Of a DNA stretch of 16,741 bases, positions 1 to 16,741 are shown in pieces. Position 1 is the stretch's first letter; the number at the start of each line of letters is the position of its first letter. The notes beneath the pieces are model-generated. The model was not told the DNA's origin, made no database searches, and worked only from the letters and a program-made list of their open reading frames with translations. Location: NCBI GenBank assembly GCA_902591645.1, contig CACJBM010000051.1, positions 1 to 16,741 of the forward strand. The letters run 5' to 3'. A program made the position numbers and the translations under genes. This stretch comes from an uncultured Verrucomicrobiota bacterium. GTDB lineage: Bacteria > Verrucomicrobiota > Verrucomicrobiae > Verrucomicrobiales > DEV007.

Positions 1-3000
1 ACCGTCCGCGTCCTCTGTCCTATCATCTATCAAGTACATTGTAATAACGGCATCTGCATTCAACACTCCGTCACTCACACGAACACCAAGCTCGAAACTG
101 ACAGCACTTTCGTAATCGATATCTCCACTGTCATTAACGATAAGCTTGGACCCTATAATAGAAAATGCCTCATTCCCATCGGCATCAGTATTACGGTTAG
201 AGACAATCGAGTAACTGAGTGCATCATTATTAGCATCCGTTGCAACCAAAGCTCCTACCTCGAATGAATTGGGAGCTGACTCAGAAAGAGTAAATGACTG
301 AGCTGCAATGACAGGCGCTTCGTTCGGAAAACTCAGCGGATCAGCCGGATCTCGACCAACTGCTACTTCTTCAGCATCTGTGTACCCGTCACCATCACTA
401 TTTAAATCCAGATCACTCGTTCCATAAATATCTTCCTCCTGAGCCTCCGTCAACCCGTCGCCGTCCGCGTCCTCATCTCGATCATCCGTCAGATTAATAG
501 TAATCACAGCATCATCAGTTAAGACACCATCACTCACTAATACATTCACTTTAACTTGCGTGGCCACTTCATAATCAAGCACGCTCACATCTGTAGTCTT
601 TAGCACATTACCTTCAAATATAAATCCATTGCCTTGATCTATGACCACATAACTCAGCGTGTCTTCCTTATTAGTATCCGTCGCAATGACTGATCCAACC
701 TGAATATACCACTCAGCAATTGTAAATTCCTGATCCGCTATCACCGGCGCTTCGTTAGGGAAATTGGTAGCATCAGCTGGATCACGACCAGCCGCCACTT
801 CCTCCGCGTCTGTGTAACCATCACCATCACTGTTTAAATCCAGGTCACTTGTCCCATGGATATCTTCCTCCTGAGCCTCCGTTAACCCGTCACCGTCCAC
901 GTCCTCTGTCCTATCATCCGTTAAATTAATCGTAACCGTTGTATCCGCAGTCAAAACCCCGTCACTCACTCGAACACCGACCTGGAGACTCGTAGCCGTT
1001 TCGTAATCAATATCTCCGCTGTCATTAACGATAAGCTTGGATCCACTAATGGAGAACGCATCATTGTTGTCGCCATCTGCATTAGTGTTGGAGATAATCG
1101 TGTAGCTTAGCGTATCGTTATTAGTATCCGTTGCCACTAAGGTTCCTATCCCAAAAGAATTATTTTCTGAATCGTACAAATCACTTACCTCCTCTAATGA
1201 AAGTGCTCGGTTGTAGATGCGAATATCGTCAATCAATCCGCCAAAGTAAGACGGAAAGCCATATGCCTCCCAGCGCGCTGTATAGCCAAGGAAAAAAGGT
1301 TCTGAATTACTAAGATCAGCGTCATTTAAGTCTGTAGTGTAGACCTTATCTTCAACACCGTTTTTGAACCATTTTATAACTCCTTTATTGAACGTTAACG
1401 TCCAATAATTCCATAACTCTGAAGCAGGAGTGCTATTTGTAGTATAGTAATCATCTCCCAGGCTACGGAAATTAATCTTGCCTCTTCTATTAAAGTCGTG
1501 ATGAATCACATAACCGTCATCACTGCCCGCAAAACGAGCGTTACCCATTTTGCTAATTATTCCCACTGTATTATCTCCTTGCCCCCACGAGTCCGGTTTT
1601 AACCAAAATGACAAGGACATTTCGTCGTCAAAGTTAAGGTCTGAAGAATCATTAACTTTAATATAGTCATTAACCCCATCAAAGCTGTACGCACTGCCCG
1701 CATTGCCCTCACGATCAGTAGCGAGAGTCGCTCCATTAACAGTACCATTGTTGCCATTACCGCTCTCATCATTGGCATTGCCGTTGAAGGGGTAGTAGGC
1801 GACAAGACCATTTTCTGAGACAGTTGTCTCTGAAAGAGTAAATGATTGACTAGCAATTACAGGAGCCTCGTTCGGAAAATTGGCAGCATCAGCTGGATCT
1901 CGACCAACTGCTACTTCCTCCGCGTCTGTGTAACCGTCACCATCACTATTGACATTCGTATCACTCGTCCCATAAACATCCTCCTCCTGAGCCTCCGTTA
2001 ACCCGTCACCATCCGCATCTTCTGTCCTATCATCCGTAAGATTCACTGTGACCGTTGCATCCGCAGTCAACACACCATCACTCACTCGGACGCCGACCTG
2101 GAGATTAGTAGCCGTTTCGTAATCAATATCTCCACTATCATTAACGATAAGCTTTGATCCACTAATGGAGAACGCATCATTGTTGTCGCCATCTGCATTA
2201 GTGTTGGAGATAATCGTGTAACTAAGCGTATCGTTATTGGTATCCGTTGCCACTAAGATTCCTACCACGATATAATTTTTCTCGAGGTCGTAAAGCGCGC
2301 TCACCTCGCCTGCTGTAAGCGCGCGATTGTAGATGCGGATATCGTCGATTGAGCCATTAAAATGCTGAATGCTACCGCCAGCTCGTGAGCCGATGTAGAG
2401 AGGTTCTGTTGAATCTGCAAGCGGCCCGGAAACATTATTAGATACTACTTCGGTAGAAGTGAGCAGGCCGTCGATGTAGAGCTTCACCCCGTTGTCGTCT
2501 GTTCCGTCATAGCTTGTAACGAAGTGGTACCATTTATCCGGGACATAATTGAATGAAGCGTCCCGGATGATTCGCGAGGCATCCCCATTCCTCCGGTCCT
2601 GATAGACAACCCTTATTGTATTTCCTTCGTTGGCCTGAATTAGAAATTCGCCTTTATTCGCCTGATCATCGAAGTATTTCCCAACAAACACTTGCCAACC
2701 GCTGACGGCATCCCATTTCGCCCAGGCGGAAATAGTTACTGCGCTCAAACCACTGATTGCAGTGGAATCAGGCGCTCTTATATAATCATCAATCCCATCA
2801 AAGCTGTATGAACTGTTCGCATTGCCGTTGCGGTCAGTGGTCAGGGTCGCACCGTTGACCGTACCGTTATTGTCGCTGCCACTCGCATCATCGGCATTGC
2901 CGTTGAAGGGATAGTAGGCCACCAGGCCGTCGTTGAGAGACAGTTCTGGTTCCTCCAGCTCGTAAAGCTCACTGATCTCGGCAGAGCTCAAGACACGATT

Positions 3001-6000
3001 GTAAATACGCACTTCGTCGATTTCACCATGCCAATACATGCCTGCCGAATTCCCTCCAGTAGTAACGGAATGCCCGATTGTTACGTTATCAATGCCCCTG
3101 ACTGTCCCAGCTGATGCAGTGTTGGTTCCGATCAATTGCCCGTTCAGATAGATTTTATATTGGTTGCCATCATAAATTGCACTCACAAGTGACCAATCAT
3201 TTAGGGGCAACACATTCGTCCTGGCTTCTCGTGCCCCGTCACTATTCGCGGCAATGGCAGCCCTGCCCTGATCTGCCTCTGGGTAAGCGCCTCCAAGGCA
3301 CATCAGGCCGAAGGCCTGATTTTGCCCCGGCTGATTTATCCCTTTGCCAGCTCCAACAATGAAAGGATAAGGCTTGTGCGAGAAACTGGATGGATTAACC
3401 CAGGCAGATACGGAAAAATGGTCTGTTATTCCAAGAGTGTTTGAAACATTGATACTGATTGAATCATTGACCCCATCGAAACTGTAGGATTTTAAAGCAT
3501 TGCCGTTGCTGTCGGTGGTGAGGGTAGCACCATTGACAGTACCATTATTCCCATTACCGCTCTCATCATCGGCGTTGCCGTTGAAGGGGTAGTAAGCCAC
3601 CAGACCATCTTCCAAGGTCGGCTTTGGCTTCTCCAGGTCGTAAAGCGCACTCACCTCGCCTGCTGTAAGCGCGCGGTTGTAGACACGGACATCATCCAAA
3701 CTGCCGCGCATTGTGAGACTTTCCGGAGATCCTATGCTAAATTCCGCCTGAGCATTTGGAAATACAGCCGGCCCTTCCTGAGTTGCCATATGTTGTCCAT
3801 CAAGATAGGAAGAATAGTCGCTGCCGTTTTTGGTATAGATTATTTGATGCCATTGCCCATCATCAGTAAAATCAGTACCTGCCAACCAATATGCCGGTCC
3901 CACACCATGGTCAAATACGCTGTAGTAAAATTTCTTATCGGATGCAATATAGTAAACTCCCCATTTCTTTACTGATCCATCGCTACCAGATTGGCCAATT
4001 ATAGGACCGGTCCGTGCTCCATCTGTGTACTTGAACCAAACAGCCAGAGTCATGTTCCCATCGGCAAAGTTTAAGTGGTCTCCATCTGCTGCAGAAATGT
4101 TACCATCGGCTCCATCAAAGCTGTAGGCACTATCCGCATTACCATTACGGTCAGCCGCCAGCGACGCTCCATTAACTGTACCGTTATTACCATTACCGCT
4201 CTCATCATTGGCATTGCCGTTGAATGGGTAGTAGGCGACAAGACCATTTTCTGAGACAATTGTCTCAGAAATCGTAAATGATTGAGCGGCAATTATAGGA
4301 GCTTCGTTCGGAAAATTGGCAGCATCAGCAGGATCACGACCAACTGCTACTTCCTGCGCGTCTGTGTAACCGTCACCATCACTATTGACATTCGTATCAC
4401 TGGTCCCATAAATATCTTCCTCCTGAGCCTCCGTTAACCCATCACCATCAGCGTCTTCTGTCCTATCATCCTTCAGATTGACCGTAATTACCGCAGTATC
4501 AGTTAAGACTCCATCACTAACTGACACATTCACCTTCACTTGATTGACCGGCATTTCGATAACATAAGAATATTTGTTGCTGCCAACATCATCATGCCAG
4601 CCAGTATTTTCATCTCCCGCTCCAGGGCCCACTATTACAGTGTAATTTTGAGCATTCTCACTTGTCACTCCATTGTGATTCGGCTCATTAGAGGACCAAT
4701 CATTAGCACTAAGTGCCTCACCATTGATCCACTTCCAACTCGCTTCATTTTCAGCATCCGACAACCCTATCCATACATGCACTGCACCTTGCGCAACAAC
4801 GGCATCACCTTCATAACTCTCCACTTGCGCATTTACTTTATCAATCTTCTCCTGCGTATCAAGAACAGCTAACCTTCCTCCAAGTGACTCGGCATTCTCT
4901 TTAGCTTGGTCCCAGGTATAACTACCTGCAACAATTTCGAAGGTGCTTTGAGACCAGTCAACATCTTGTGCCTCATAGTCAAGCGTGGTCGAATCCGCGA
5001 CCTTCAGTACATTCCCTTCAAAAACAAATTTATGGATCTTTTCTAGGAGGTAGCCCTTTTCATTGTTTATATTTCCGTTACCCGTTGCCACGTTTGGATC
5101 ATCAACAAGCGAATCATTCCACCGGCGCTGAGAATCTCTAGAAGACCAAAAAATATGAGCGTAATCTTCAGCTGCCAAATTGCCATCCGGCTGTCCTGGT
5201 TCCCAGTTCGCGAACGTCAAGGCTTCTCCAGTAATCCACCTCCAATCTCCTTCTTGTTCATTGTCAGATAATCCAATCCATAAAGATCCAGCAAAACTGT
5301 TAATGACAGAAGTTGCAGTGGAAAGAACTTCCGAAGTATTCAAAACCGCTAAACGCCCTCCCTTAGCCTCTGCATCCGCCTTAGCTTGATCCCATGTGAA
5401 ATTACCCTCGACTATTGAAAAATTGGCAACCGTATAAGTCAGCGAATCTTCCTTATTAGTGTCCGTCGCTATAACTGATCCAACCTCAGTGAGTCGCTCA
5501 ACAACCGTAAATGCCTGATCCGCTATCACTGGCGCCTCGTTCGGGAAATTTGTAGCATCAGATGGATCACGACCAGCCGCCACCTCCTCAACATCCGTGT
5601 AACCATCACTATCACCATCAACTGAATTAGGATCACTCAAATACAGAGTAAGTTCATCGTAGTTACTAAATCCATCACCATCAGAATCAGCTGTATCCTT
5701 AGTGAAAATTGCACCAATCCTCTTGTCCCCATCCATTGTTAAAGTTACTGGATTATCAGTTCCCGTATTAGCTCCAGTCCATTTAGTGAATAAATATCCT
5801 GTGTCGGGTACTGCGGTCACTGTAGCTGTTGAACCCAATTTGTTAGTCGGCGAATATGTAAGAATACCATTTAATTTTCCTTCTTTCTCAATCGTATAAA
5901 GATCAGTCACTTCAGCATTTGAAATGGCACGATTGTAGATACGAACATCGTCAATTCCTCCACGCATGGGGTTCTGTTCAGCATTTCCAATATAGAAAGG

Positions 6001-9000
6001 AGTGGAGGGATTCGGAAAAAGTGTCGGCCCTTCCTGAGTCGTCATCTTTTCACCGTCAAGATAAGAAGTATATGAATTTCCATTTTTAGTATAAATGATC
6101 TGGTGCCATTTTCCGTCATCCACATAAGAAGCTGCTGACAACCAATACGCGGGACCGACGCCATGATCAAAAACGTGAAAGTAAAATTTCTCACCAACTT
6201 CACTGTAGTAAATGTACCACTTTTTGGCTGATCCTCCAGTACGCGGAGACTGTCCAATTAACGTGGTATTCCTTGCCCCTCCCGAAAATTTAAACCAACA
6301 TGACAGGGTCATGTCTCCAGAAGCAAAATTTAAATAGCTCTGGTCAGGAACACTTATATTACTATCATTCCTATCAAAGTCATAGGCGCTATTAGCTTCA
6401 TCATTTCGGTCAGCAGATAGGGTCACTGCATTTATTTCACCATCATTCGCATTCGCGCTTTCATCATTTGCATTTCCTTCAAAAAGATAATGAGCGATGA
6501 GACCCTCCTTGAGGGACAATGAAGTCGATATCGAGCGGGTCGGGTAATCGTCCGCATCATTAGGGTCCGTGCTGTGAGAAATTAACTCATCATAGTTAGA
6601 GAAGCCGTCACCATCAGTATCATTCGTATCTTTAGCAAAAGTGGCACCGATCGTCTTATCAGCATCCATCGTAAGTGTCACTGGATTATCAGTTCCAGTA
6701 TTAGCTCCAGTCCATCCAGTGAATGCGTACCCTACGTCAGGCACAGCAGTGACTGTGGCTACTGCTCCTAACTTGTGAGTGGCAGCTGCAGTGATCGATC
6801 CATTCGCTATATCGCTAGTCGATTTTTCTAAGATATAACCATTAATATTACCCGGATCCAATGGGGCATCATGCCAACCCTTGTTGTCACTATGTAAAAG
6901 CACATACCGCTCGACGTTACCTGCCGCATTGTTAGGATCATTATTCCCCCCCCAATTAGTATATGAAAACTCTTCTCCAGTCACCCATTCCCAACTACCT
7001 TCAGAACCATTTGCATCGGTAGCACCAATCCAATACCTCTGATCTCCAATATTTGGTACGGCCGAATTGACTGCGACCCTCTCGTCATAGGAAGTAATAA
7101 CAGCCAGATGACCTCCCTTTGAAATAGCATCCTCTTTAGCTTCCCTCCAGCTATGAGCTTCACTAACAATAGAATACGTTGACGCCTGCTTTGAATAACT
7201 CAAAATACGGGTTGGATAATCATTCGAATCATTAGGATCTGTAGAGTGAGTCACAAGCTCATCGTAATTACTAAATCCATCACCGTCCGTGTCCGCAGTA
7301 TCTTTAGAAAACTTAGCCCCTATACTCTTATTACTACCCATAGTTAAAGTCAGCGGATTATCGGTACCCGCATCCGCTCCGACCCAGCCAGAAAATACGT
7401 ATCCTGAATCAGCTACGGCTGTGACTAATGTAGTTGTTGTATCTCTTTTGTGAGCAGCTGTATAATTAATAGAGCCATTGGTAATATCCGGCACGGAAGA
7501 AGGAACCTCTAAAAGATAAGGATATGTGAACGGATCACTTCCATCATGCCAATCAGGGTCCCCGGTATGATTAGACTCTATGATGACTGCATAATCCTCG
7601 TTCGAAGAAGGTCCGGCATTATTAGGCTCATTGGTTGCCCAGTTTTCCAATCCGATATTTTCACCAGTGATCCATTGCCATTTCCCTTCAACTTCTTCAT
7701 CAGTTAGACCTAGCCAAAGGGTCGGCCAAGTTCCTAATCCATTCAGATACGCATTAGCAGCATCTAGATTAACCTGTGAATTCAGTACCGCTAACCTCCC
7801 CCCCCGCGATTCAGCATCCTCTTTAGCTTTGGCCCAAGTAAGGGCATTATTAACAATCGAAAATACGGAAGCCTTCTTAAGTAAACTTAAGGTATAAACA
7901 GGATGTAACTCAATAATATAATCACCCGTACCTCCCATTCCAACAACAACATCCGTTGCCCCCTCGATCTTATCTAACTCCTCACCTCCAGATCTTGTCC
8001 ACCTACGAAATTCGCCATTTGCCATTTGGGCCACCATATAATTATCGCTAAATAATATTTTTTCACATCCTGTGAGCCCTTCAGCTATGTCAAAAAATAC
8101 ACCAAAATCGCCATCCTCATCCCCCCAACAGGTCACTGTCCCATCTACAAGAACTGCCGCTGACATTTCATAGCCTGCGGCAACGCTAACTACTCCACCA
8201 AGATTAGCCGGAACAGAATTACCGGAGAAATTATTCCCACCCCAAGAAACAACTTTGCCGTTCTTGAGTAAAGCAACCACATGCGTTCTAGTCATGCTGA
8301 TTTCTTTTATATTCGTGACCCCTTCAGGAGGAGAGGTCGCATCAGAATTGCTTTTTCCCCAAGCCAAAACCGTACCATCTTCTTGTATTGCGAAACTGTT
8401 CTGAGGCCCAGCTGCTATATATACGACCTTCGCTGTTCCCGCATTTTGAAGTGCTGCCGGCACAATGGATTGCCCTTCATGACGGTCATCACGATTAGCA
8501 CCAGCATTGGCTTCTCTGTCCATATCACTTTGCGTTCCTGCCCCCCATGCAATGACCGTACCGTCCGCAAGTAAGGCGAGACAATGATCACTACCCGCAG
8601 CCACTTGAGTTACTTTTTGACCAATTGTAGGCGGAGAGGCCTGACCAAATTCTGGGAAAGTATCTGTTTTGGTGGTTCCTTGCCCCCAACACCGAACTGA
8701 ACCATCATTTAATAATGCAACAACATGACGTCTCCCAGCTGCCACTGAAACAACTTCCCCTTGTATCTCATTGGGAAAATTAAGCCTCCCAGTATAATTC
8801 GATCCACTTGATAGGTTATTGCCAAAAAGCCCATATACAGATTGAGCCAACGAAGTCACACGACGCCCCTCGATGACATCAGGAAAATTAGAATCTAAAG
8901 GGACATAAACCTTTGTAGGATTGCCGTTGCTATTTGAAAAGACCTCCACTCCATCGTGGTGGGAAGAAGAACCAAAAGTTGGGGCATTACCAAGAAAAGT

Positions 9001-9798
9001 TATGCTCGTCAGGCTGGTGCAGCCGTCAAAGGCCCAAGTCCCAATGCTTGTGACGCTGTCAGGAATCGTAATACTACTGAGACTTGTGCAATTTCGAAAG
9101 GTTTCATCCCCAATGCTAGGCACACTACCCAAAATAGTAATACTGGCTAGAGATCTGCATCCACTGAATGCCTCTTGGCCCAGACTAGTAACGCTTGGAG
9201 GAATAATTATACTTGTCAGAGATGTACATCCACTGAAGACATTCCGATCGATGCTGGTCACGCTATACGGAATAGTAATACTAGTCAGACTACTGCATCC
9301 TTTAAAAACAGCTTCTTCGAGACTAGTTACACTGTTTCCAATTATAACGCTGTTCAAGGAACTGCATCCATTAAAAGCATCATGCCCGAGGCTGGTCACA
9401 CTGTCCGGAATCGTGATAGAGGTTAGGCTCGAGCAGTAAAGAAAAGCGTTATCCCCAATACTGGTAACGCTATCAGGAATCGTAATGCTACTCAGGCTAC
9501 TGCATCTTCTAATGGCCTGATCCGCAATGCTAGTTACTCCATCGGAAATCGTGATATGAGTCAAACTCTGGCAGTCTCTGAAAGCCGAGTTCCCAATGCT
9601 GATCACAGGATTCCCTCCAATGGTGGATGGAATGGTCAATGCGCCTGATGCTGCTTCAGAACAATCTGTAATGGTCACTTCACCATTAGAAACTGTCCAA
9701 GTTAGATCACTTAGCGGAACATCTTGAGCCAATGACACCGTCGAAAGCAGCAAAGAAAAAATAATTATAATAGGACTTATAATAAAAATACTTTTCAT
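1..9798 (-). CDS. giant secreted multidomain adhesin-like protein (C-terminus beyond left edge)
   Basis: The frame is open for 3,266 codons from ATG at 9798 to base 1, with no in-frame stop. Residues 1-24 form a Sec signal peptide (Lys2, a long Ile/Leu core, cleavage after SLA). Modules in order: BspA-type LRRs (about 68-274), RCC1-like repeats (347-626), CTLD1 (645-765), InlB-like plus TSP3, CTLD2 (874-991), InlB-like plus TSP3, LamG A (1097-1306), InlB-like plus TSP3, then five cadherin-like/TSP3 units. Unit 1 contains CTLD3 and CTLD4, unit 2 contains LamG B, C and D, unit 3 contains LamG E, and units 4 and 5 are uninterrupted. These folds bind ligands, glycans or calcium, and no catalytic domain is seen. 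The likely role is surface attachment or glycan recognition, which is inference. No Shine-Dalgarno precedes the ATG. A sorting or anchoring signal would lie in the missing C-terminus. Confidence 0.9.
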   Translation of the reverse strand, partial: MKSIFIISPIIIIFSLLLSTVSLAQDVPLSDLTWTVSNGEVTITDCSEAASGALTIPSTIGGNPVISIGNSAFRDCQSLTHITISDGVTSIADQAIRRCSSLSSITIPDSVTSIGDNAFLYCSSLTSITIPDSVTSLGHDAFNGCSSLNSVIIGNSVTSLEEAVFKGCSSLTSITIPYSVTSIDRNVFSGCTSLTSIIIPPSVTSLGQEAFSGCRSLASITILGSVPSIGDETFRNCTSLSSITIPDSVTSIGTWAFDGCTSLTSITFLGNAPTFGSSSHHDGVEVFSNSNGNPTKVYVPLDSNFPDVIEGRRVTSLAQSVYGLFGNNLSSGSNYTGRLNFPNEIQGEVVSVAAGRRHVVALLNDGSVRCWGQGTTKTDTFPEFGQASPPTIGQKVTQVAAGSDHCLALLADGTVIAWGAGTQSDMDREANAGANRDDRHEGQSIVPAALQNAGTAKVVYIAAGPQNSFAIQEDGTVLAWGKSNSDATSPPEGVTNIKEISMTRTHVVALLKNGKVVSWGGNNFSGNSVPANLGGVVSVAAGYEMSAAVLVDGTVTCWGDEDGDFGVFFDIAEGLTGCEKILFSDNYMVAQMANGEFRRWTRSGGEELDKIEGATDVVVGMGGTGDYIIELHPVYTLSLLKKASVFSIVNNALTWAKAKEDAESRGGRLAVLNSQVNLDAANAYLNGLGTWPTLWLGLTDEEVEGKWQWITGENIGLENWATNEPNNAGPSSNEDYAVIIESNHTGDPDWHDGSDPFTYPYLLEVPSSVPDITNGSINYTAAHKRDTTTTLVTAVADSGYVFSGWVGADAGTDNPLTLTMGSNKSIGAKFSKDTADTDGDGFSNYDELVTHSTDPNDSNDYPTRILSYSKQASTYSIVSEAHSWREAKEDAISKGGHLAVITSYDERVAVNSAVPNIGDQRYWIGATDANGSEGSWEWVTGEEFSYTNWGGNNDPNNAAGNVERYVLLHSDNKGWHDAPLDPGNINGYILEKSTSDIANGSITAAATHKLGAVATVTAVPDVGYAFTGWTGANTGTDNPVTLTMDADKTIGATFAKDTNDTDGDGFSNYDELISHSTDPNDADDYPTRSISTSLSLKEGLIAHYLFEGNANDESANANDGEINAVTLSADRNDEANSAYDFDRNDSNISVPDQSYLNFASGDMTLSCWFKFSGGARNTTLIGQSPRTGGSAKKWYIYYSEVGEKFYFHVFDHGVGPAYWLSAASYVDDGKWHQIIYTKNGNSYTSYLDGEKMTTQEGPTLFPNPSTPFYIGNAEQNPMRGGIDDVRIYNRAISNAEVTDLYTIEKEGKLNGILTYSPTNKLGSTATVTAVPDTGYLFTKWTGANTGTDNPVTLTMDGDKRIGAIFTKDTADSDGDGFSNYDELTLYLSDPNSVDGDSDGYTDVEEVAAGRDPSDATNFPNEAPVIADQAFTVVERLTEVGSVIATDTNKEDSLTYTVANFSIVEGNFTWDQAKADAEAKGGRLAVLNTSEVLSTATSVINSFAGSLWIGLSDNEQEGDWRWITGEALTFANWEPGQPDGNLAAEDYAHIFWSSRDSQRRWNDSLVDDPNVATGNGNINNEKGYLLEKIHKFVFEGNVLKVADSTTLDYEAQDVDWSQSTFEIVAGSYTWDQAKENAESLGGRLAVLDTQEKIDKVNAQVESYEGDAVVAQGAVHVWIGLSDAENEASWKWINGEALSANDWSSNEPNHNGVTSENAQNYTVIVGPGAGDENTGWHDDVGSNKYSYVIEMPVNQVKVNVSVSDGVLTDTAVITVNLKDDRTEDADGDGLTEAQEEDIYGTSDTNVNSDGDGYTDAQEVAVGRDPADAANFPNEAPIIAAQSFTISETIVSENGLVAYYPFNGNANDESGNGNNGTVNGASLAADRNGNADSAYSFDGADGNISAADGDHLNFADGNMTLAVWFKYTDGARTGPIIGQSGSDGSVKKWGVYYIASDKKFYYSVFDHGVGPAYWLAGTDFTDDGQWHQIIYTKNGSDYSSYLDGQHMATQEGPAVFPNAQAEFSIGSPESLTMRGSLDDVRVYNRALTAGEVSALYDLEKPKPTLEDGLVAYYPFNGNADDESGNGNNGTVNGATLTTDSNGNALKSYSFDGVNDSISINVSNTLGITDHFSVSAWVNPSSFSHKPYPFIVGAGKGINQPGQNQAFGLMCLGGAYPEADQGRAAIAANSDGAREARTNVLPLNDWSLVSAIYDGNQYKIYLNGQLIGTNTASAGTVRGIDNVTIGHSVTTGGNSAGMYWHGEIDEVRIYNRVLSSAEISELYELEEPELSLNDGLVAYYPFNGNADDASGSDNNGTVNGATLTTDRNGNANSSYSFDGIDDYIRAPDSTAISGLSAVTISAWAKWDAVSGWQVFVGKYFDDQANKGEFLIQANEGNTIRVVYQDRRNGDASRIIRDASFNYVPDKWYHFVTSYDGTDDNGVKLYIDGLLTSTEVVSNNVSGPLADSTEPLYIGSRAGGSIQHFNGSIDDIRIYNRALTAGEVSALYDLEKNYIVVGILVATDTNNDTLSYTIISNTNADGDNNDAFSISGSKLIVNDSGDIDYETATNLQVGVRVSDGVLTADATVTVNLTDDRTEDADGDGLTEAQEEDVYGTSDTNVNSDGDGYTDAEEVAVGRDPADAANFPNEAPVIASQSFTLSETTVSENGLVAYYPFNGNANDESGNGNNGTVNGATLATDREGNAGSAYSFDGVNDYIKVNDSSDLNFDDEMSLSFWLKPDSWGQGDNTVGIISKMGNARFAGSDDGYVIHHDFNRRGKINFRSLGDDYYTTNSTPASELWNYWTLTFNKGVIKWFKNGVEDKVYTTDLNDADLSNSEPFFLGYTARWEAYGFPSYFGGLIDDIRIYNRALSLEEVSDLYDSENNSFGIGTLVATDTNNDTLSYTIISNTNADGDNNDAFSISGSKLIVNDSGDIDYETATSLQVGVRVSDGVLTADTTVTINLTDDRTEDVDGDGLTEAQEEDIHGTSDLDLNSDGDGYTDAEEVAAGRDPADATNFPNEAPVIADQEFTIAEWYIQVGSVIATDTNKEDTLSYVVIDQGNGFIFEGNVLKTTDVSVLDYEVATQVKVNVLVSDGVLTDDAVITINLTDDRDEDADGDGLTEAQEEDIYGTSDLDLNSDGDGYTDAEEVAVGRDPADPLSFPNEAPVIAAQSFTLSESAPNSFEVGALVATDANNDALSYSIVSNRNTDADGNEAFSIIGSKLIVNDSGDIDYESAVSFELGVRVSDGVLNADAVITMYLIDDRTEDADG
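757..2262. repeat. near-identical direct repeat, 757..1146 and 1873..2262
   Basis: The two segments are colinear without gaps at an offset of 1116 bases. Over 1021..1140 against 2137..2256 I count about five differences by eye. The repeat covers the TSP3 double motif and the second part of the cadherin-like fold in units 2 and 3. A third, partial copy of the adjoining LamG start and TSP3 region is at about 4189..4480, matching 1745..2040. Confidence 0.85.
1169..1815 (-). repeat. LamG domain E (single insert in cadherin-like unit 3)
   Basis: The domain runs from ENGLVAYYPFNGNANDES through MSLSFWLKPDSW, LWNYWTLTFNKG and WFKNG to LIDDIRIYNRALSLEEVSDLYDSE. It is framed by SFTLSETTVS on one side and NNSFGIGTLVATD on the other. 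The insertion point is equivalent to that used in unit 2. Confidence 0.88.
2281..2940 (-). repeat. LamG domain D
   Basis: The domain runs from NDGLVAYYPFNGNADDASG through VTISAWAKWD, KWYHFVTSYDG and LYIDG to SIDDIRIYNRALTAGEVSALYDLE. The closing segment is almost the same in DNA as that of LamG B (near 2287 and 3643). The cadherin-like fold resumes immediately after it with NYIVVGILVATD. Confidence 0.88.
2941..3612 (-). repeat. LamG domain C
   Basis: The domain runs from DGLVAYYPFNGNADDES through FSVSAWVNPSS, NDWSLVSAIYDG and YLNGQLIG to EIDEVRIYNRVLSSAEISELYELE. It joins LamG B and D through short KPKPT and EEPEL linkers. GC content by hand count of sampled lines is about 50-55 percent, above that of LamG E and the CTLDs (about 38-43 percent). 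Confidence 0.88.
3625..4251 (-). repeat. LamG domain B (first of three in cadherin-like unit 2)
   Basis: The domain starts at ENGLVAYYPFNGNANDES and ends at LDDVRVYNRALTAGEVSALYDLE. It follows SFTISET, the first strand of cadherin-like unit 2, without a linker. The first roughly 50 residues are nearly identical to LamG E, whereas the core is closest to LamG A, which suggests recombination between copies. Confidence 0.88.
4546..4944 (-). repeat. C-type-lectin-like domain 4, second insert in the same cadherin-like repeat
   Basis: Residues 1619-1751 show FEIVAGSYTWDQAKENAE, GGRLAVL, VWIGLSD, WKWINGE, EPNHNG, WHDD and YVIEMP. The domain splits LDYEAQ from QVKVNVSVSDGVLT, which are nearly contiguous in cadherin-like unit 4. 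CTLD3 and CTLD4 share the TWDQAK and GGRLAVL blocks and are probably close paralogues. Confidence 0.85.
5032..5424 (-). repeat. C-type-lectin-like domain 3, inside a cadherin-like repeat
   Basis: Residues 1459-1589 show FSIVEGNFTWDQAKADAE, GGRLAVL, LWIGLSD, WRWITGE, a QPD motif (galactose-type by family rule), WND, and GYLLEK. The domain lies between SLTYTVA and KFVFEGNVLK, segments that adjoin in the uninterrupted cadherin-like unit 4. It therefore looks inserted into the cadherin-like fold rather than placed between domains. Confidence 0.85.
5881..6510 (-). repeat. LamG/concanavalin-like domain A
   Basis: Residues 1097-1306 form a LamG_3-type jelly roll: GLIAHYLFEGNANDES, YDFD, a WFKF strand, WHQIIYTKNG, YLDG, and the typical end GGIDDVRIYNRAIS-AEV-LY. 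It lies after a TSP3 motif and before an InlB-like repeat. It most resembles LamG B, sharing FDHGVGPAYWL, WHQIIYTKNG and the TQEGP stretch. Confidence 0.88.
6826..7179 (-). repeat. C-type-lectin-like domain 2 (CTLD2)
   Basis: Residues 874-991 have the same order of motifs as CTLD1: W-REAKEDA-GGHLA, YWIGATD, WEWVTGE, a DPNN motif where EPN usually sits, WHD, and GYILEKS at the end. No cysteines are present. It is followed by an InlB-B-like repeat and a TSP3 motif, the same succession as after CTLD1, so the two cassettes probably arose by duplication. Confidence 0.85.
7504..7866 (-). repeat. C-type-lectin-like domain 1 (CTLD1)
   Basis: Residues 645-765 of the giant protein run from FSIVNNALTWAKAKEDAE to PYLLEV. 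Visible family marks are the WxxAKxxAExxGGRLA helix, LWLGLTD, the WQWITGE strand, an EPNN calcium/mannose-type motif and a late WHD in place of WND. The canonical CTLD cysteines are absent. An InlB-B-like repeat follows directly. Confidence 0.85.
7921..8763 (-). repeat. RCC1-like propeller repeats
   Basis: Residues 347-626 of the giant protein contain about five to six blades of the form VVSVAAGxxHxxAL..DGxVxxWG, the RCC1 pattern. Clear blades begin near residues 350, 391, 445, 490 and 525, and the last one is degenerate. RCC1 repeats form a seven-bladed propeller in eukaryotes. In bacterial secreted proteins they are generally taken as binding scaffolds. The segment may be completed by flanking degenerate blades. 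Confidence 0.8.
8977..9597 (-). repeat. nine tandem BspA-type leucine-rich repeats (23 aa, 69 bp)
   Basis: Nine consecutive 23-residue units inside the giant gene follow the pattern IGxxAFxGCSSLTSITIPxSVTS. Each keeps a Cys before the SSL triplet. This is the LRR_5/BspA pattern of bacterial surface proteins, known from adhesins. The preceding residues (about 25-67) match the usual N-terminal cap of such arrays, with TWTVSNGEVTI and the GALTIPSTIGG stretch. The 69-bp period is visible in the DNA but the copies have diverged, so this is an old array. Confidence 0.9.
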
Positions 9799-10151: not shown

Positions 10152-13100
10152 ATGAAGCCTCTATTACTTATCCTCATCCTCTGCACCGGATTAGCCCATC
10201 CATCTCAGGGTCAAGTCGTCGGCCCTGAGCCCCTGTACAAGAGCCGGGTCCTGAAGAGTGGTGACGAGGAACGCTTGGTCCCCATCGAGGTCGCACTCAA
10301 TAAGCGCGACCTTTACCTGATCGTCTCCAGTGACGGCAATGCGAGCCACGACTGGGCGAGCTGGATCGAGCCTGAAGTCGTGATGAGAGACGGCACTATC
10401 CTCGACCTCAGCACTTACAATTGGCGCGCCGCCTTTAATCAGGTCAAGCGCGGAAAGACGTACCGCGGCGGCACCATGATGGTCGCCGGAAAAGAATACA
10501 CTAAGGGCCTCGGCACGCATGCCGAATCCTTCATTTGGTTCCAAGTCCCCGAAGACGCCACTACTTTCCGGTCCAAGATCGCTCTCGATGATGGGGGCGC
10601 GGTCCGTGATGGGGAACTGACTCCCGCTTCTGTTCGGTTCCTCGTCTATGACCGCGAGCCGATTGGCTACGACAGGACAAATGACAACTTCAATCTTAAA
10701 TCGCCCGATCCGCAGAGCCTGCCGGCTGAGCAGATTGCAGTACCGGACGATCTCGAAGTGACTACTTGGGCCACGAGTCCAATGTTCCTTAACCCGACCA
10801 ACATGGACACTGATGCGCAAGGGCGGATCTGGGTCGCGGAGGGAGTCAACTATCGCAAGAATCGAAACCGGCGCCCTGAAGGTGACCGTATCGTCGTTCT
10901 TGAGGACACGGACAGGGACGGCAAAGCCGATAGTTCACATGTCTTCGTGCAGGACCCCGAACTGGTCTCTCCACTCGGAATCAGCGTCTTTGGTAATCAG
11001 ATCGTAGTGGCTCAGCCACCGCACCTCATCGTCTACACCGATGTCGATGGCGATCTGAAGTTCGACCCGAAAGTCGATAAGCGCGAGAACCGACTCAGCG
11101 GATTCAATGGCAAGAATCACGACCATAGCCTGCACGCCGTGGTCAGCGGACCGGATGGTAAGTGGTACTTCAATCAAGGAAACTGTGGAGCCCAGTTCAA
11201 GACCAAGGACGGGGATGAGTTTTTCATTGGCGGCCAATACAATGGAGGCGAAAATCCACCAGCCGATTCTCAGGGCATCGCCGGCAAGCAAAGCTCCGAT
11301 GGGCACGTGTGGGTCGGCGGATTCGCAGCCAAAATGAACCCCGATGGAACTCAGGTCCGCATCATTGGACATGGTTTCCGCAACAGCTACGAACACACGG
11401 TCAGCTCGTTCGGGGACGTCTTTCAAAACGACAACGATGACCCGCCAGCGTGCCGCACTACCTGGCTCATGGAGGGTGGATTCCTCGGTTTCTTCTCACC
11501 TGACGGAAAACGTGGATGGAAAGCGGATCAGCGACCGGGCCAGAGCATACAAGATGCTCAGTGGCGACAAGCGGACCCTGGAGTATTGCCGGCCGGAGAC
11601 GTGTACGGCGGCGGCTCTCCCACGGGGATCTGCTTCTACGAAAACGGTGCCCTGCCTTCGAAGTATTCCGGACTGCTCCTGAGCTGCGAAGCTGGCCGCA
11701 AGGTCGTCTTTGGGTACTTTCCTAAACTCAAAGACTCTGCTTTCAAGCTCGACCGTTCAGACTTCATTAAGAGCAAGGGAAGTAACTTCTTTCGCCCTTC
11801 CGATGTGATGGTCGGTGCCGATGGTGCTCTTTACGTCGCTGACTGGTTCGACTCCGGAGTCGGCGGTCATAGCGACAATGACGAATCCTGCTCTGGAACC
11901 ATCTACCGAATCGCCCCGAAGGGATTCGAGCCGCGGATTCCCAAAGCCGATCCCAAAACCATTGAAGGCGCGGTGACCCTCCTTTCGAGCCCCGCCCAGA
12001 ACGTTCGATTCGTCGGGTTCCAGACCCTCAAGGCCGCCGGGCCCAAGGCAATTCCCGCGGTCCGTAAGCTTCTCGAACATCCAAACGAATATGTTCAGGC
12101 CCGCGCTGTCTGGCTACTCCCTCTGCTCGGCAATGAGGGACTCAAGATCGTCAACTCAATGCTCGGTAAGAGCCCAGACGCGCAGAAGCGGTTACTGGCC
12201 TTCCGTGCCCTCCGCAACGCCGGACAAGACGTCGTTCCCCTCGTTTCAAAGCTCTCGAGGCAGGAACCTAGTGCTGCAGTTCGTCGGGAAGCCGCGATCG
12301 CCCTGCGAGACGTTCCTGCCGATCGCAAAATTTCCCACCTCTTCTCTCTCCTTCAACAATGTAAAGCGGATGACCGGACCTATCTTGAAGCCTGCGGGAT
12401 CGGAGCCAAAGGTGCCGACACTGACCAGCTCTGGCTCGACTTGAAGCGGAGCGCCTCCATTGATGATCCTGCCAAATGGTCAGCAGCTTTTGCCCGCATC
12501 GCCTGGCGCATTCGGCCCCCATCAGCCATCGATGATTTACTTAACCGCGCCGAAGAGACGACTCTTCCCCTGGAGGCTCGTCTCCTCGCGGTCGAAAGCC
12601 TCGCCTTCTACGACAATCGCCGTGCCGTTCCCGCTCTTCTCAAAGCGGCAAAGATCAATGGCCCGGTCGGAGCAGAAGCCACACGATGGTTGATTCATTT
12701 AGGCAACACTCGTTGGCGAAAGTTTAGAGTCTTCGATTCCTTAAAGAAGGAAGGAATCTACGACCCATCCCAAGTCAAAATCACCGAAATTGTCGTTCCG
12801 CCCGCCGGGTCCAAGTCCAAATTACCGACCGTCGCTAAAATCCTCGCCCTCGAGGGCAATGCCGAGAAGGGCAAGATCACGGCCGCGCGTTGCGTGATGT
12901 GCCACCGGATCGAAGGGCTGGGCATCGACTACGGCCCGTCCTTGGAAGGATGGATCCAAAACCAAGGAGACGAGAAATTTGTGCAGTCCGTCGTGAACCC
13001 CTCCGCCGAGATTGCTCACGGTTATCCCGGCAGTCGCGTCCAACTCAAGGACGGAAAAGAAATTCATGGCCTGACCCTGAGTTCCAAAAATCCGCTCATC

Positions 13101-13256
13101 GTGCAAAGCCAGGGCGGCATCGTGCAAGTCATCCCTTCAGGCAAAATTAAAAGCGTCGAGCCGCTCGGGCGATCCCTCATGCTTTCCGCTGAACAACTCG
13201 GTATGAGTGCTCAGGATGTTGTCGATATTCTTGCCTACCTAAAATCGCTCAATTAG
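10152..13256 (+). CDS. PVC-type dehydrogenase-like protein with NPCBM domain, HEAT repeats and heme-binding CxxCH tail
   Basis: This 1034-residue protein has a signal peptide (about residues 1-20, MKPLLLILIL core). An NPCBM-like carbohydrate-binding module (about 45-170) follows, with ASHDWASWIEPEVV and GLGTHAESFIWF. The PVC-specific membrane-bound-dehydrogenase propeller (about 195-595) shows NPTNMDTDAQGRIWVAEG, NHDHSLHA and SDVMVGADGALYVADW. HEAT-like helices occupy about 600-850. The C-terminal cytochrome-type domain carries heme motif CVMCH at 914-918 and GPSLEGW. The family is known almost only from Planctomycetota and Verrucomicrobiota, with substrates unproven. A periplasmic oxidation feeding electrons to the heme tail is inferred, and the NPCBM suggests a sugar substrate or wall anchoring. 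It stands alone on the plus strand, has higher GC (mid-50s percent in sampled lines) than its neighbours, and stops 15 bases before the convergent gene. Confidence 0.9.
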   Translation: MKPLLLILILCTGLAHPSQGQVVGPEPLYKSRVLKSGDEERLVPIEVALNKRDLYLIVSSDGNASHDWASWIEPEVVMRDGTILDLSTYNWRAAFNQVKRGKTYRGGTMMVAGKEYTKGLGTHAESFIWFQVPEDATTFRSKIALDDGGAVRDGELTPASVRFLVYDREPIGYDRTNDNFNLKSPDPQSLPAEQIAVPDDLEVTTWATSPMFLNPTNMDTDAQGRIWVAEGVNYRKNRNRRPEGDRIVVLEDTDRDGKADSSHVFVQDPELVSPLGISVFGNQIVVAQPPHLIVYTDVDGDLKFDPKVDKRENRLSGFNGKNHDHSLHAVVSGPDGKWYFNQGNCGAQFKTKDGDEFFIGGQYNGGENPPADSQGIAGKQSSDGHVWVGGFAAKMNPDGTQVRIIGHGFRNSYEHTVSSFGDVFQNDNDDPPACRTTWLMEGGFLGFFSPDGKRGWKADQRPGQSIQDAQWRQADPGVLPAGDVYGGGSPTGICFYENGALPSKYSGLLLSCEAGRKVVFGYFPKLKDSAFKLDRSDFIKSKGSNFFRPSDVMVGADGALYVADWFDSGVGGHSDNDESCSGTIYRIAPKGFEPRIPKADPKTIEGAVTLLSSPAQNVRFVGFQTLKAAGPKAIPAVRKLLEHPNEYVQARAVWLLPLLGNEGLKIVNSMLGKSPDAQKRLLAFRALRNAGQDVVPLVSKLSRQEPSAAVRREAAIALRDVPADRKISHLFSLLQQCKADDRTYLEACGIGAKGADTDQLWLDLKRSASIDDPAKWSAAFARIAWRIRPPSAIDDLLNRAEETTLPLEARLLAVESLAFYDNRRAVPALLKAAKINGPVGAEATRWLIHLGNTRWRKFRVFDSLKKEGIYDPSQVKITEIVVPPAGSKSKLPTVAKILALEGNAEKGKITAARCVMCHRIEGLGIDYGPSLEGWIQNQGDEKFVQSVVNPSAEIAHGYPGSRVQLKDGKEIHGLTLSSKNPLIVQSQGGIVQVIPSGKIKSVEPLGRSLMLSAEQLGMSAQDVVDILAYLKSLN

Positions 13257-15382: not shown

Positions 15383-15868
15383 TTATTTTTTATAAGCTTC
15401 TTCTTGTGAATCAACAGGCTCACCTTTGCTGTTCCAATACTTTGCAGAACCTTCGACTAATTTGCCATCCTTGTAGTTTTTTTCTATACCCCTCTGCCCG
15501 TTTTCATGCCACTGAGTCTCTAGCCCCTCCTCCTTGCCGGCCTTGTAATTTGCTTCTACAGCCTTCTGCCCGTTTTCATGCCACACTACCCATAGCCCAT
15601 CAAGTTTGCCGTCCTTGTAGTTTGCTTCTGTATGCTTCTGTCCGTTTTCATGCCATGACACCACTAATCCATCTAATTTCCCGTCCTTGTAGTTTGCTTC
15701 ATACTTCTTTCCCCCGTGATAGTTGGAGGGTTTATACCAGATAGGGGGAGGGAAGCCCAGTTGAAGGCCTGGCCATGACTGTGGTCTACCGTCTGTTTCT
15801 TTTGGAACACAGCCTGACGCAAACAGGGGCAGTGTTACAATGATCAGGAATAAGGGTACGGGGTTCAT
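15383..15868 (-). CDS. MORN_2/YwqK-type repeat lipoprotein
   Basis: This 161-residue protein has a lipoprotein signal with lipobox ASGC (Cys20). Residues about 55-140 hold three clear 24-residue repeats, EANYKDGKLDGLxVxWHENGQK, plus a final variant ending in YKDGKLVEG. This is the MORN_2 pattern of the YwqK family, named antitoxin-like in databases, though the role of most members is unproven. The end, KYWNSKGEPVDSQEEA, is nearly the same as the end of the other repeat protein at 16173. The ATG at 15868 lies three bases after the stop of the small membrane protein, so translation is probably coupled. It should be membrane-anchored outside the cytoplasm. Confidence 0.85.
   Translation of the reverse strand: MNPVPLFLIIVTLPLFASGCVPKETDGRPQSWPGLQLGFPPPIWYKPSNYHGGKKYEANYKDGKLDGLVVSWHENGQKHTEANYKDGKLDGLWVVWHENGQKAVEANYKAGKEEGLETQWHENGQRGIEKNYKDGKLVEGSAKYWNSKGEPVDSQEEAYKK
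15455..15700 (-). repeat. 72-bp tandem repeats encoding MORN_2 units
   Basis: The plus-strand string ccgttttcatgccac or a close variant recurs with its g at 15500, 15572 and 15644, a period of 72 bases. This encodes the 24-residue WHENGQK units of the lipoprotein. It is a coding repeat and not a separate element. Confidence 0.8.
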
Positions 15869-15871
15869 GGG

Positions 15872-16141
15872 TTATTTAATCAGCTTTCCTTGAGTTCCTC
15901 GCATAAAAAATTTCACAACCCATATAAGTAATTGTAATAACGCAGCAAAATAACAGATGAAAACTCCAATCAGAAAAAAAGTTAACGCCACGCCAGATCC
16001 ATTAGCCCCATCACTCCCATCACCCAGAATAACACCAACAATAATTAAAAACGCACCGATTAGAAAAAGTCCACAACCAGGATAACCCAATAATAACGTT
16101 TTTGATGCTCTCTTCTTCTTTTCTTTTATCTCTTCACTCAT
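15872..16141 (-). CDS. small two-helix membrane protein
   Basis: This 89-residue protein, counted from ATG at 16141, begins MSEEIKEKKKRASK, a highly charged cytoplasmic tail. Two hydrophobic segments follow: about LLLGYPGCGLFLIGAFLIIV and VALTFFLIGVFICYFAALLQ, with a short GDGSDGANGSG loop between. It ends in a basic tail, FFMRGTQGKLIK. The positive-inside rule puts both ends in the cytoplasm. A TTG two codons upstream (16147) is possible, but the ATG is preferred. It sits between two YwqK-type genes, with 31 bases to the upstream gene and three to the downstream one, so all three are probably one operon. No family is recognised. It could be a membrane partner of the repeat proteins, which is inference. 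Confidence 0.75.
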   Translation of the reverse strand: MSEEIKEKKKRASKTLLLGYPGCGLFLIGAFLIIVGVILGDGSDGANGSGVALTFFLIGVFICYFAALLQLLIWVVKFFMRGTQGKLIK

Positions 16142-16172
16142 AACCAAACAGGCGCGCGGGTTTCATGAGTTA

Positions 16173-16741
16173 TTATTTGTTAGCTTCTTCTATTGTATCA
16201 ACAGGTTCGCCTTTGCTATTCCAATACTTGTCCGAACCTTTTACCGCTTCCCCATCTTTGTAGGTTTTAGCTGTAATTATTTTACCAGTTTCATCCCAAA
16301 AAACCCACAATCCATCACCCCTACTATCGAGCCCCCAACTATCGGCATTCCCTTCCGCTTTTTTCTGACCATTTTGGTGAAATATTTTAAGCAAGCCATT
16401 AGGCACACCTCTCTTATATGTTGTTATACTCCAAACTTTATCAGTCCATTTGGAGGCTTCATTACTATCTCCCAACAATTCGTTTTTCTCTAATGCCTCT
16501 TGGAGCTCTTTTCTTCTCGTTTCAAGAAGCTCTTTACCGCTCTTTGGGTGCATCCTATAAGAAATGCCTGAAAAAAATTTTCCATTTTTCCTTGTTATAA
16601 CTTCGCCGTCTAATCTACGAAATTCATCAAGGTCCATTTTTAGCTCGTATTCTTTAACGGCACCTTTGGGCACAGTTACTCTCTCCAGACCCTTTACAAA
16701 ATATCGATCGTATTCTGCAAGTTTATCTAAACGTAATTTGA
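16173..16741 (-). CDS. MORN_2/YwqK-type protein, N-terminus beyond right edge
   Basis: The frame ends at TAA 16173 and stays open to the window edge. A GTG at 16673 could serve as a start, but the codons before it (LDKLAEYDRYFVKGLERV) read like protein continuous with what follows, so I call a 5'-partial gene. The C-terminal half carries degenerate MORN_2 units: GVPNGLLKIFHQNGQKK, GDGLWVFWDETGKI and TYKDGEAVKGSDKYW. The last 25 residues closely match the end of the 15383 lipoprotein, so the two are paralogues. The N-terminal part (DLDEFRRLDGEVITRKNGK) contains another weak repeat. Whether it has a signal peptide cannot be seen. It is the first gene in view of the three-gene cluster. Confidence 0.78.
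   Translation of the reverse strand, partial: KLRLDKLAEYDRYFVKGLERVTVPKGAVKEYELKMDLDEFRRLDGEVITRKNGKFFSGISYRMHPKSGKELLETRRKELQEALEKNELLGDSNEASKWTDKVWSITTYKRGVPNGLLKIFHQNGQKKAEGNADSWGLDSRGDGLWVFWDETGKIITAKTYKDGEAVKGSDKYWNSKGEPVDTIEEANK

What the first reader, a model, noticed from the sequence alone, without database searches (positions are those of the whole stretch)
1160..4308. LamG modules plugged at one fixed slot in successive cadherin-like units: three, one, none, none
After the first strand (QSFTxSE) and before VGxLVATD, unit 2 carries three LamGs, unit 3 one LamG, and units 4 and 5 only a few residues (WYIQ; SAPNSFE). The same slot is thus empty, single or triple. This looks like a constant scaffold with exchangeable, expandable cargo that could change binding specificity between strains.
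Basis: partly seen in the sequence, partly recalled or inferred. Interest (0 to 1): 0.7.

Follow-up and report, generated by a model that had tools for sequence, protein, structure and literature searches.

The report
Split cadherin repeats carrying swappable lectin-like modules
A giant, probably cell-surface, protein of a probable verrucomicrobial bacterium carries lectin-like modules inserted inside its repeated cadherin-like units, and its DNA suggests that one inserted module was exchanged while the scaffold around it stayed the same; the general layout is known from other bacterial adhesins, but this form was not met elsewhere in the material searched.

Summary
A 3,266-aa frame (window 9798 to 1, minus strand, open at the edge) has five TSP3+cadherin-like units. 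Between QSFTxSE and VGxLVATD, unit 2 holds three LamGs (666 aa), unit 3 one (226 aa), units 1, 4 and 5 only 4, 4 and 7 residues. In 43 distinct units (5 from the window) this slot is 4, 6 or 7 residues in 41; only the two window units are filled. "Exchangeable" is supported: units 2 and 3 are about 90% identical in DNA up to 45 codons into the LamG, then 46%, then 89% from the first post-slot residue; unit 3's LamG core is nearest to LamGs of proteins with other architectures. "Expandable by copying" is not supported: unit 2's three LamG cores are mutually dissimilar. Variation between strains could not be tested; no orthologue was found. The closest known principle is the split domain of RTX adhesins. 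Both structure models failed (mean pLDDT 48 and 44).

The parts
1..9798 (-). Giant reading frame, 3,266 aa in the window, runs off the window edge at its 3' end
7879..8781 (-). RCC1-type repeats, aa 340-640, after an LRR_5 region
5680..7872 (-). CTLD, InlB-type (Flg_new_2)+TSP3, CTLD, InlB+TSP3, LamG0, InlB: modules placed in line, not inserted (aa 643-1373)
5434..5541 (-). Unit 1, first cadherin piece (aa 1420-1455); slot A holds only RLTE
5041..5421 (-). CTLD inserted in unit 1 at slot B (cadherin model 44|51)
4960..5037 (-). Unit 1, middle cadherin piece ending LDYEAQ (aa 1588-1613)
4555..4944 (-). CTLD inserted in unit 1 at slot C (cadherin model 74|75), just after LDYE
4474..4545 (-). Unit 1, last cadherin piece (aa 1752-1775)
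4264..4308 (-). Unit 2, pre-slot strand NEAPIIAAQSFTISE
3631..4245 (-). LamG 2a in slot A of unit 2
2953..3606 (-). LamG 2b in slot A of unit 2
2281..2928 (-). LamG 2c in slot A of unit 2; its last 53 nt are 94% identical to those of LamG 2a
2035..2265 (-). Unit 2, post-slot cadherin part starting VGILVATD
1873..2031 (-). TSP3 linker between units 2 and 3
1828..1872 (-). Unit 3, pre-slot strand NEAPVIASQSFTLSE
1165..1809 (-). LamG 3 in slot A of unit 3; first 45 codons match LamG 2a in DNA, the core does not
919..1149 (-). Unit 3, post-slot cadherin part starting IGTLVATD
487..756 (-). Unit 4, uninterrupted cadherin-like unit (slot WYIQ)
28..324 (-). Unit 5, uninterrupted cadherin-like unit (slot SAPNSFE)

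Best explanation
This is a very large secreted surface protein, most likely an adhesin. Its TSP3+cadherin-like repeats act as a stalk and as split domains: the chain leaves a cadherin unit at one of a few permissive loops, folds an autonomous cargo domain, and returns to complete the cadherin fold, so that the cargo projects sideways. Slot A (after the conserved E of QSFTxSE) takes LamG, slot B takes a CTLD, slot C (after LDYE) takes a CTLD here and RCC1 repeats in relatives. Units 2 and 3 arose by duplication of a unit that already had a LamG in slot A; afterwards the LamG core of one of them was replaced by a different LamG. The left breakpoint lies up to about 45 codons inside the LamG, in its conserved first segment, and the right one at the slot edge. 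Shown at sequence level: the layout, the empty slots in the sampled relatives, the mosaic DNA. Inferred: recombination through the conserved LamG ends as the route, completion of the cadherin fold across the insert, calcium stiffening, ligand binding, secretion and surface location.
For: Layout. Slot A is 4, 6 or 7 residues in 41 of 43 distinct units and filled in 2, both in the window. Unit 2 against unit 3: nt identity 0.90 over 356 nt up to aa 1896/2708, then 0.46 over 466 nt (LLR 95.1, largest of 500 permutations 8.8); on the other side (LamG 2c against LamG 3) 0.51 over 637 nt, then 0.89 over 392 nt from aa 2512/2884 (LLR 82.0, permuted maximum 14.2). Selection on the protein alone does not explain it: among identical residues the same codon is used in 52 of 63 before the slot (24.8 expected from this gene's codon usage), 31 of 42 in the first 52 LamG columns (16.3), 7 of 21 in the core (7.9), and 91 of 119 after the slot (46.1) (binomial values). 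LamG 3's core is 54% identical to P0146 and 53% to P0142, which have other architectures, but only 24 of 123 core columns match LamG 2a. LamG 2a and 2c share the last 53 nt at 94% (LLR 23.7, permuted maximum 8.9), with the same codon in 13 of 15 (4.7 expected). Slots B and C in unit 1. RCC1 at slot C: P0002, P0003, L045, L046, L047, L058. The scaffold matches solved cadherins, e.g. protocadherin 5szr_A, E 5e-14, two stretches.
Against: Both AlphaFold models are unusable (mean pLDDT 47.6, pTM 0.42; 43.9, 0.37), so completion of the fold across the insert is not shown. Filling of slot A was met in this one protein only, so the exchange rests on one pair of units in one contig. The synonymous change points for units 2 and 3 are only slightly above the permuted maxima (11.2 against 9.5; 10.4 against 9.2), and the left one falls at aa 1870/2682, about 19 codons into the LamG rather than 45; the synonymous change point for LamG 2a against 2c (4.2) is below its permuted maximum (11.7), as are those for 2a/2b and 2b/2c. 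Slot C cargo in the relatives is RCC1 each time, not visibly exchanged among them, and the closing cadherin pieces after RCC1 score low (6 to 13 bits). Conserved LamG ends with a variable core are a general feature of the LamGs fetched (1,516 domains, a set chosen by words shared with the query), so the protein pattern alone proves nothing. No within-species variation, secretion or binding evidence exists.
Confidence: 0.65

Rival explanations
1. Ordinary beads-on-a-string shuffling: LamGs were joined in line, and the short pre-slot strand is a leftover of an earlier cadherin unit rather than part of a split fold.
For: In other proteins LamG stands in line before a cadherin-like unit that has a first strand of its own (L075, L070, P0028, P0018, P0329). 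In the window itself CTLDs and LamG0 stand in line before InlB units. No usable structure.
Against: In both filled units the pre- and post-slot halves together make exactly one unit, with no duplicated or missing part. The pre-slot strand is kept with its conserved E, and the post-slot halves start without a first strand of their own. Unit 1 shows insertions at two further interior points, and RCC1 sits at one of these interior points in relatives.
Confidence: 0.15
2. No exchange: units 2 and 3 are old duplicates whose LamG cores diverged fast in place, while the ends and the scaffold were kept alike by gene conversion or selection.
For: LamG ends are conserved in general. Synonymous change points for units 2 and 3 are only slightly beyond permutation. 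Scaffold units could homogenise.
Against: The cores have different nearest relatives in the fetched set: LamG 3 with P0146 and P0142 at 53-54%, LamG 2a with LamG0 at 59%, which in-place divergence would not give. Synonymous similarity extends into the LamG start (31 of 42) and is at expectation in the core (7 of 21, 7.9 expected).
Confidence: 0.15
3. Assembly chimera between repeats.
For: The source is unknown and repeats within the gene are many.
Against: The frame is open over 9.8 kb. The longest exact repeat inside it is 65 nt, and repeats near the LamG start are 33-35 nt, short for confusing current assemblers (general knowledge).
Confidence: 0.05

Closest known systems
Split domains of RTX adhesins (AhLap, FrhA, MpIBP; PMC12077191 and PMC10865825, abstracts and passages seen; Graham et al. 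2024 Proteins 92:933, seen only as a citation)
   Same: A stalk domain is interrupted by a ligand-binding domain with adjacent termini, which buds out sideways before the chain returns to complete the host fold; giant repetitive adhesin.
   Different: In the passages seen the hosts are Ig-like domains, an RTX beta-roll and a vWFA domain. Here the host is a cadherin-like repeat with three slots, LamG, CTLD or RCC1 cargo, three cargos in series in one slot, and DNA evidence of cargo exchange. Whether the window protein ends in an RTX region is unknown, as its end lies outside the window.
LamG/cadherin/TSP3 multi-domain proteins of Verrucomicrobiales (nearest: P0002, P0003, P0123, P0040)
   Same: Same modules (RCC1, CTLD, InlB-type, TSP3, cadherin, LamG, in different subsets) in other orders.
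   Different: Slot A is empty in every unit of theirs that was measured; their LamGs stand in line.
Metazoan cadherins with LamG (CELSR, Fat)
   Same: Cadherin fold by profile (CELSR1 chain 8vy2_A, whole-chain E 1.5e-18, no single stretch passing alone), and both module types in one protein (recalled).
   Different: In those the LamG domains follow the cadherin array in line (recalled); they are not inserted in a cadherin repeat.

Membership tests
Cadherin domain (PF00028) | Profile match above the curated cut-off | tested here: met
   31.3 bits against 28.8 for the whole protein, E 2.8e-7, no single stretch passing E 0.001 alone; alignment A2 matches solved cadherins, e.g. 5szr_A E 5e-14 with two stretches
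Cadherin domain (PF00028) | Seven-strand Greek-key fold with calcium sites | tested here: inconclusive
   Models unusable; the LD-x-E and first-strand E positions align with protocadherin sequences
LamG / Laminin_G_3 (PF13385) | Profile match above the curated cut-off | tested here: met
   389.1 bits against 27.6, five stretches
C-type lectin-like domain (PF00059) | Profile match above the curated cut-off | tested here: met
   138.6 bits against 22.6, four stretches; sugar binding not tested
Split-domain adhesin | Host domain interrupted by another complete domain and then resumed in register | tested here: met
   Sequence level only:
Split-domain adhesin | Host fold completed across the insert, cargo projecting from it | tested here: inconclusive
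   Two structure jobs of low confidence
Split-domain adhesin | The inserted domain binds a ligand | not testable with these tools
   Needs a binding experiment
RTX adhesin | C-terminal RTX beta-roll and type I secretion signal | not testable with these tools
   The C-terminal end lies outside the window and no genome is held

The most novel reading that the evidence does not exclude
The cadherin repeat works as a general multi-slot display frame in this lineage: three loops accept any fold with adjacent termini (LamG, CTLD, propeller), and homologous recombination within the widely conserved LamG start and end segments swaps the binding core in place, so that one adhesin gene can draw on the genome's whole LamG pool to change its target.
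Probability: 0.3. Interest if true: 0.68.

Novelty: new variant of a known kind. Interest (0 to 1): 0.5.

Why it matters
Rapid change of bacterial adhesins is usually pictured as gain and loss of whole repeats (general knowledge). Here the repeat stays and the module inside it changes, with breakpoints that can be read in the DNA. If it holds in related strains, it gives a sequence rule (conserved LamG ends, fixed scaffold edges) for finding swapped adhesin tips, and a ready-made frame for displaying foreign domains. It also extends the split-domain principle to cadherin-like repeats and to several slots in one fold.

Tried and rejected
Tandem copying as the origin of the triple LamG: rejected, because LamG 2a, 2b and 2c are 39-42% identical overall and dissimilar in the middle. 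Only their ends are alike, notably the last 53 nt of 2a and 2c (94%), which rather suggests addition of further modules through end homology; the synonymous change point for that pair does not exceed permutation (4.2 against 11.7).

Orthologue test: the nearest genome by the neighbouring DUF7133 gene is G047 (85% aa; 79.7% nt), but a serine-hydrolase-type gene (my reading of the translation, from no family search) lies where the adhesin should start. G047 has one match to aa 1420-3266 of the protein at E <= 1e-10 (E 5.1e-16, 32% identity, over LamG 2c) and none at E <= 1e-30 to aa 320-1419. That second piece matched 3 of 74 family genomes at E <= 1e-30, all partially. So no orthologue was found; several of these genomes are small and perhaps incomplete.

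Other filled slot A: none met. What was examined: the best 120 listed proteins of each of three searches (of 738, 4,633 and 6,693 hits; 329 distinct proteins besides the window's own), chosen by words shared with the query, and 119 loci, mostly from 74 family, 386 order and 384 class genomes (overlapping sets; matches in 21, 22 and 15 of them at E <= 1e-10, 1e-15 and 1e-12), in which only part of the candidates were scored and at most 30 loci returned. Only units matching both half-profiles were measured; more distant cadherin units (for example in L003-L008 and L064) were not. Rarer cases can have been missed.

Structure prediction: two jobs with shallow alignments (7 and 5 rows) gave models too poor to use; no fold search was run on them.

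A 9-nt direct repeat TCAGAAAAT (minus strand) flanks LamG 3 (1162-1170 and 1810-1818, read, coordinates worked out by hand). It may be a target-site trace, but SEN may also be a shared motif, so I give it no weight.

Literature: 8 searches of the held open-access library, judged from titles and starts of abstracts of the listed papers only (15 of 28, 10 of 10, 15 of 616, 5 of 5, 12 of 21, 9 of 10, 0 of 0, 3 of 3). No listing showed a bacterial cadherin repeat with LamG, CTLD or RCC1 inserted. Subscription papers are mostly not held; the 2024 Proteins paper was not held. PMC12153261 (calcium-dependent adhesins of Pseudoalteromonas with cadherin-like domains) was seen in a listing and not read.
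Full report
What is there. The window's minus strand has one open frame from 9798 to 1 (3,266 aa, open at the window edge). Pfam gives BspA-type LRR_5, RCC1, four CTLD stretches, three InlB-type (Flg_new_2) stretches, TSP3, five LamG stretches and cadherin. A divergent neighbour (10152-13256) is a PVC-type CxxCH heme-binding protein (TIGR02604, E 3.6e-135). The best two genome loci found with the scaffold are Verrucomicrobiales MAGs. The organism is therefore probably a member of Verrucomicrobiota; no genome is held for the window.

The slot. The scaffold repeats stop and resume at fixed points in the DNA (read on the minus strand, pre-slot copies end at 280, 712, 1828 and 4264; post-slot copies start at 270, 1161 and 2277). 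With profiles for the two halves, slot A measures 4, 666, 226, 4 and 7 residues in units 1 to 5. In the enlarged census of 330 proteins (the window's own included) and 119 loci, 43 distinct units had both halves: 32 with 7 residues, 8 with 4, 1 with 6, and the two filled window units. Units in which one half did not pass the thresholds, and repeats of the same sequence, were dropped before this count. Empty is the usual state in this sample, so filled is most simply the derived state.

Two more slots. A cadherin profile of 99 positions splits unit 1 at 44|51 and at 74|75, each time around a complete CTLD. Uninterrupted counterparts of unit 1 exist (P0122, P0124). In relatives the second point holds RCC1 repeats: P0002, P0003, L045, L046, L047 and L058. 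The closing cadherin piece was scored, at 6 to 13 bits, in P0002, P0003, L047 and L058; L045 is cut by its contig end, and in L046 it was not scored, but L046 aligns with P0003 at 74% through to the end. P0002 and L045 share units and are probably the same gene (one search counted them once in part); L045, L046 and L047 come from one genome, G038. Slot C thus takes different cargo in different proteins, though always RCC1 in these relatives. Against solved cadherins, slot A falls right after the conserved E of the first strand and slot C right after LD-x-E. That these motifs bind calcium in cadherins is recalled, from no call.

Exchange. Units 2 and 3 are 90% identical in DNA from the TSP3 linker through the pre-slot strand and the first 45 LamG codons, then 46% to the end of the first LamG compared; on the other side, LamG 2c against LamG 3 is 51% and the scaffold is 89% from the first post-slot residue. 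The nucleotide change points lie far above the maxima of 500 permutations (95.1 against 8.8; 82.0 against 14.2); the synonymous ones only slightly (11.2 against 9.5, at about codon 19 of the LamG; 10.4 against 9.2). Codon identity among identical residues gives the same picture: 52 of 63 before the slot (24.8 expected), 31 of 42 in the first 52 LamG columns (16.3), 7 of 21 in the LamG core (7.9), 91 of 119 after the slot (46.1). The simplest reading is that a unit with a LamG was duplicated and then the rest of one LamG was replaced. LamG 3's core is nearest to P0146 and P0142 (54% and 53%), proteins of other architecture; LamG 2a's is nearest to LamG0 of the same protein (59%); 2b and 2c have only weak relatives in the fetched set. 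LamG 2a and 2c have nearly the same last 53 nt (94%, LLR 23.7 against 8.9), but the synonymous change point of that pair does not exceed permutation (4.2 against 11.7). The likely route is recombination through the conserved LamG ends. These ends are conserved in the LamG domains fetched (mean top-residue frequency 0.78 in columns 1-20, 0.17-0.35 in columns 61-180, 0.56 in columns 181-200; 1,516 domains, a set biased by the word-based search), so the protein pattern alone would not show exchange; the DNA comparison of units 2 and 3 and the differing relatives of the cores carry the argument.

Limits. Both structure predictions failed. No orthologue was found: in the nearest genome, G047, another gene lies beside the shared DUF7133 gene, and in 74 family genomes only 3 had matches, all partial, to the RCC1-to-InlB part at E <= 1e-30. 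Among relatives that share the RCC1-in-cadherin end, the C-terminal part is 71-74% identical over 742 to 1,770 aligned columns, while the order of LamG, CTLD and InlB before it differs (P0003: LamG x3, CTLD, InlB x2, LamG, InlB x7; L046: LamG, CTLD x2, LamG, InlB). Assembly error is unlikely, since the longest exact repeat inside the frame is 65 nt.

Relation to known work. Ligand-binding domains budding from split domains are described for RTX adhesins (PMC12077191 and PMC10865825; abstracts and passages seen). In those passages the hosts are Ig-like domains, a beta-roll and a vWFA domain; the word cadherin has no occurrence in either main text. The window protein is laid out like these but cannot be filed as an RTX adhesin, because its end lies outside the window. 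Hence: new variant of a known kind.

Noticed in passing
window 15383-16739 (-): Two ORFs with MORN_2-type repeats (the second just below the curated cut-off), one with a 72-nt tandem array at 15462-15704.
   Followed up: no
window 10152-13256 (+): DUF7133/PVC CxxCH heme-binding protein; 67 of 74 family genomes have a match at E <= 1e-100, and in G047 a different gene lies upstream of it.
   Followed up: partly
L045, L046, L047, L058; P0002, P0003: RCC1 repeats inserted inside a cadherin-like unit just after the LDYE-type motif (LQYQ in P0002 and P0003).
   Followed up: partly
window 1162-1170 and 1810-1818: 9-nt direct repeat TCAGAAAAT (minus strand) flanks LamG 3 at the slot edges; could be a target-site trace or a shared SEN motif.
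   Followed up: no
window 9044-9581: LRR_5 region made of 69-nt DNA repeats.
   Followed up: no
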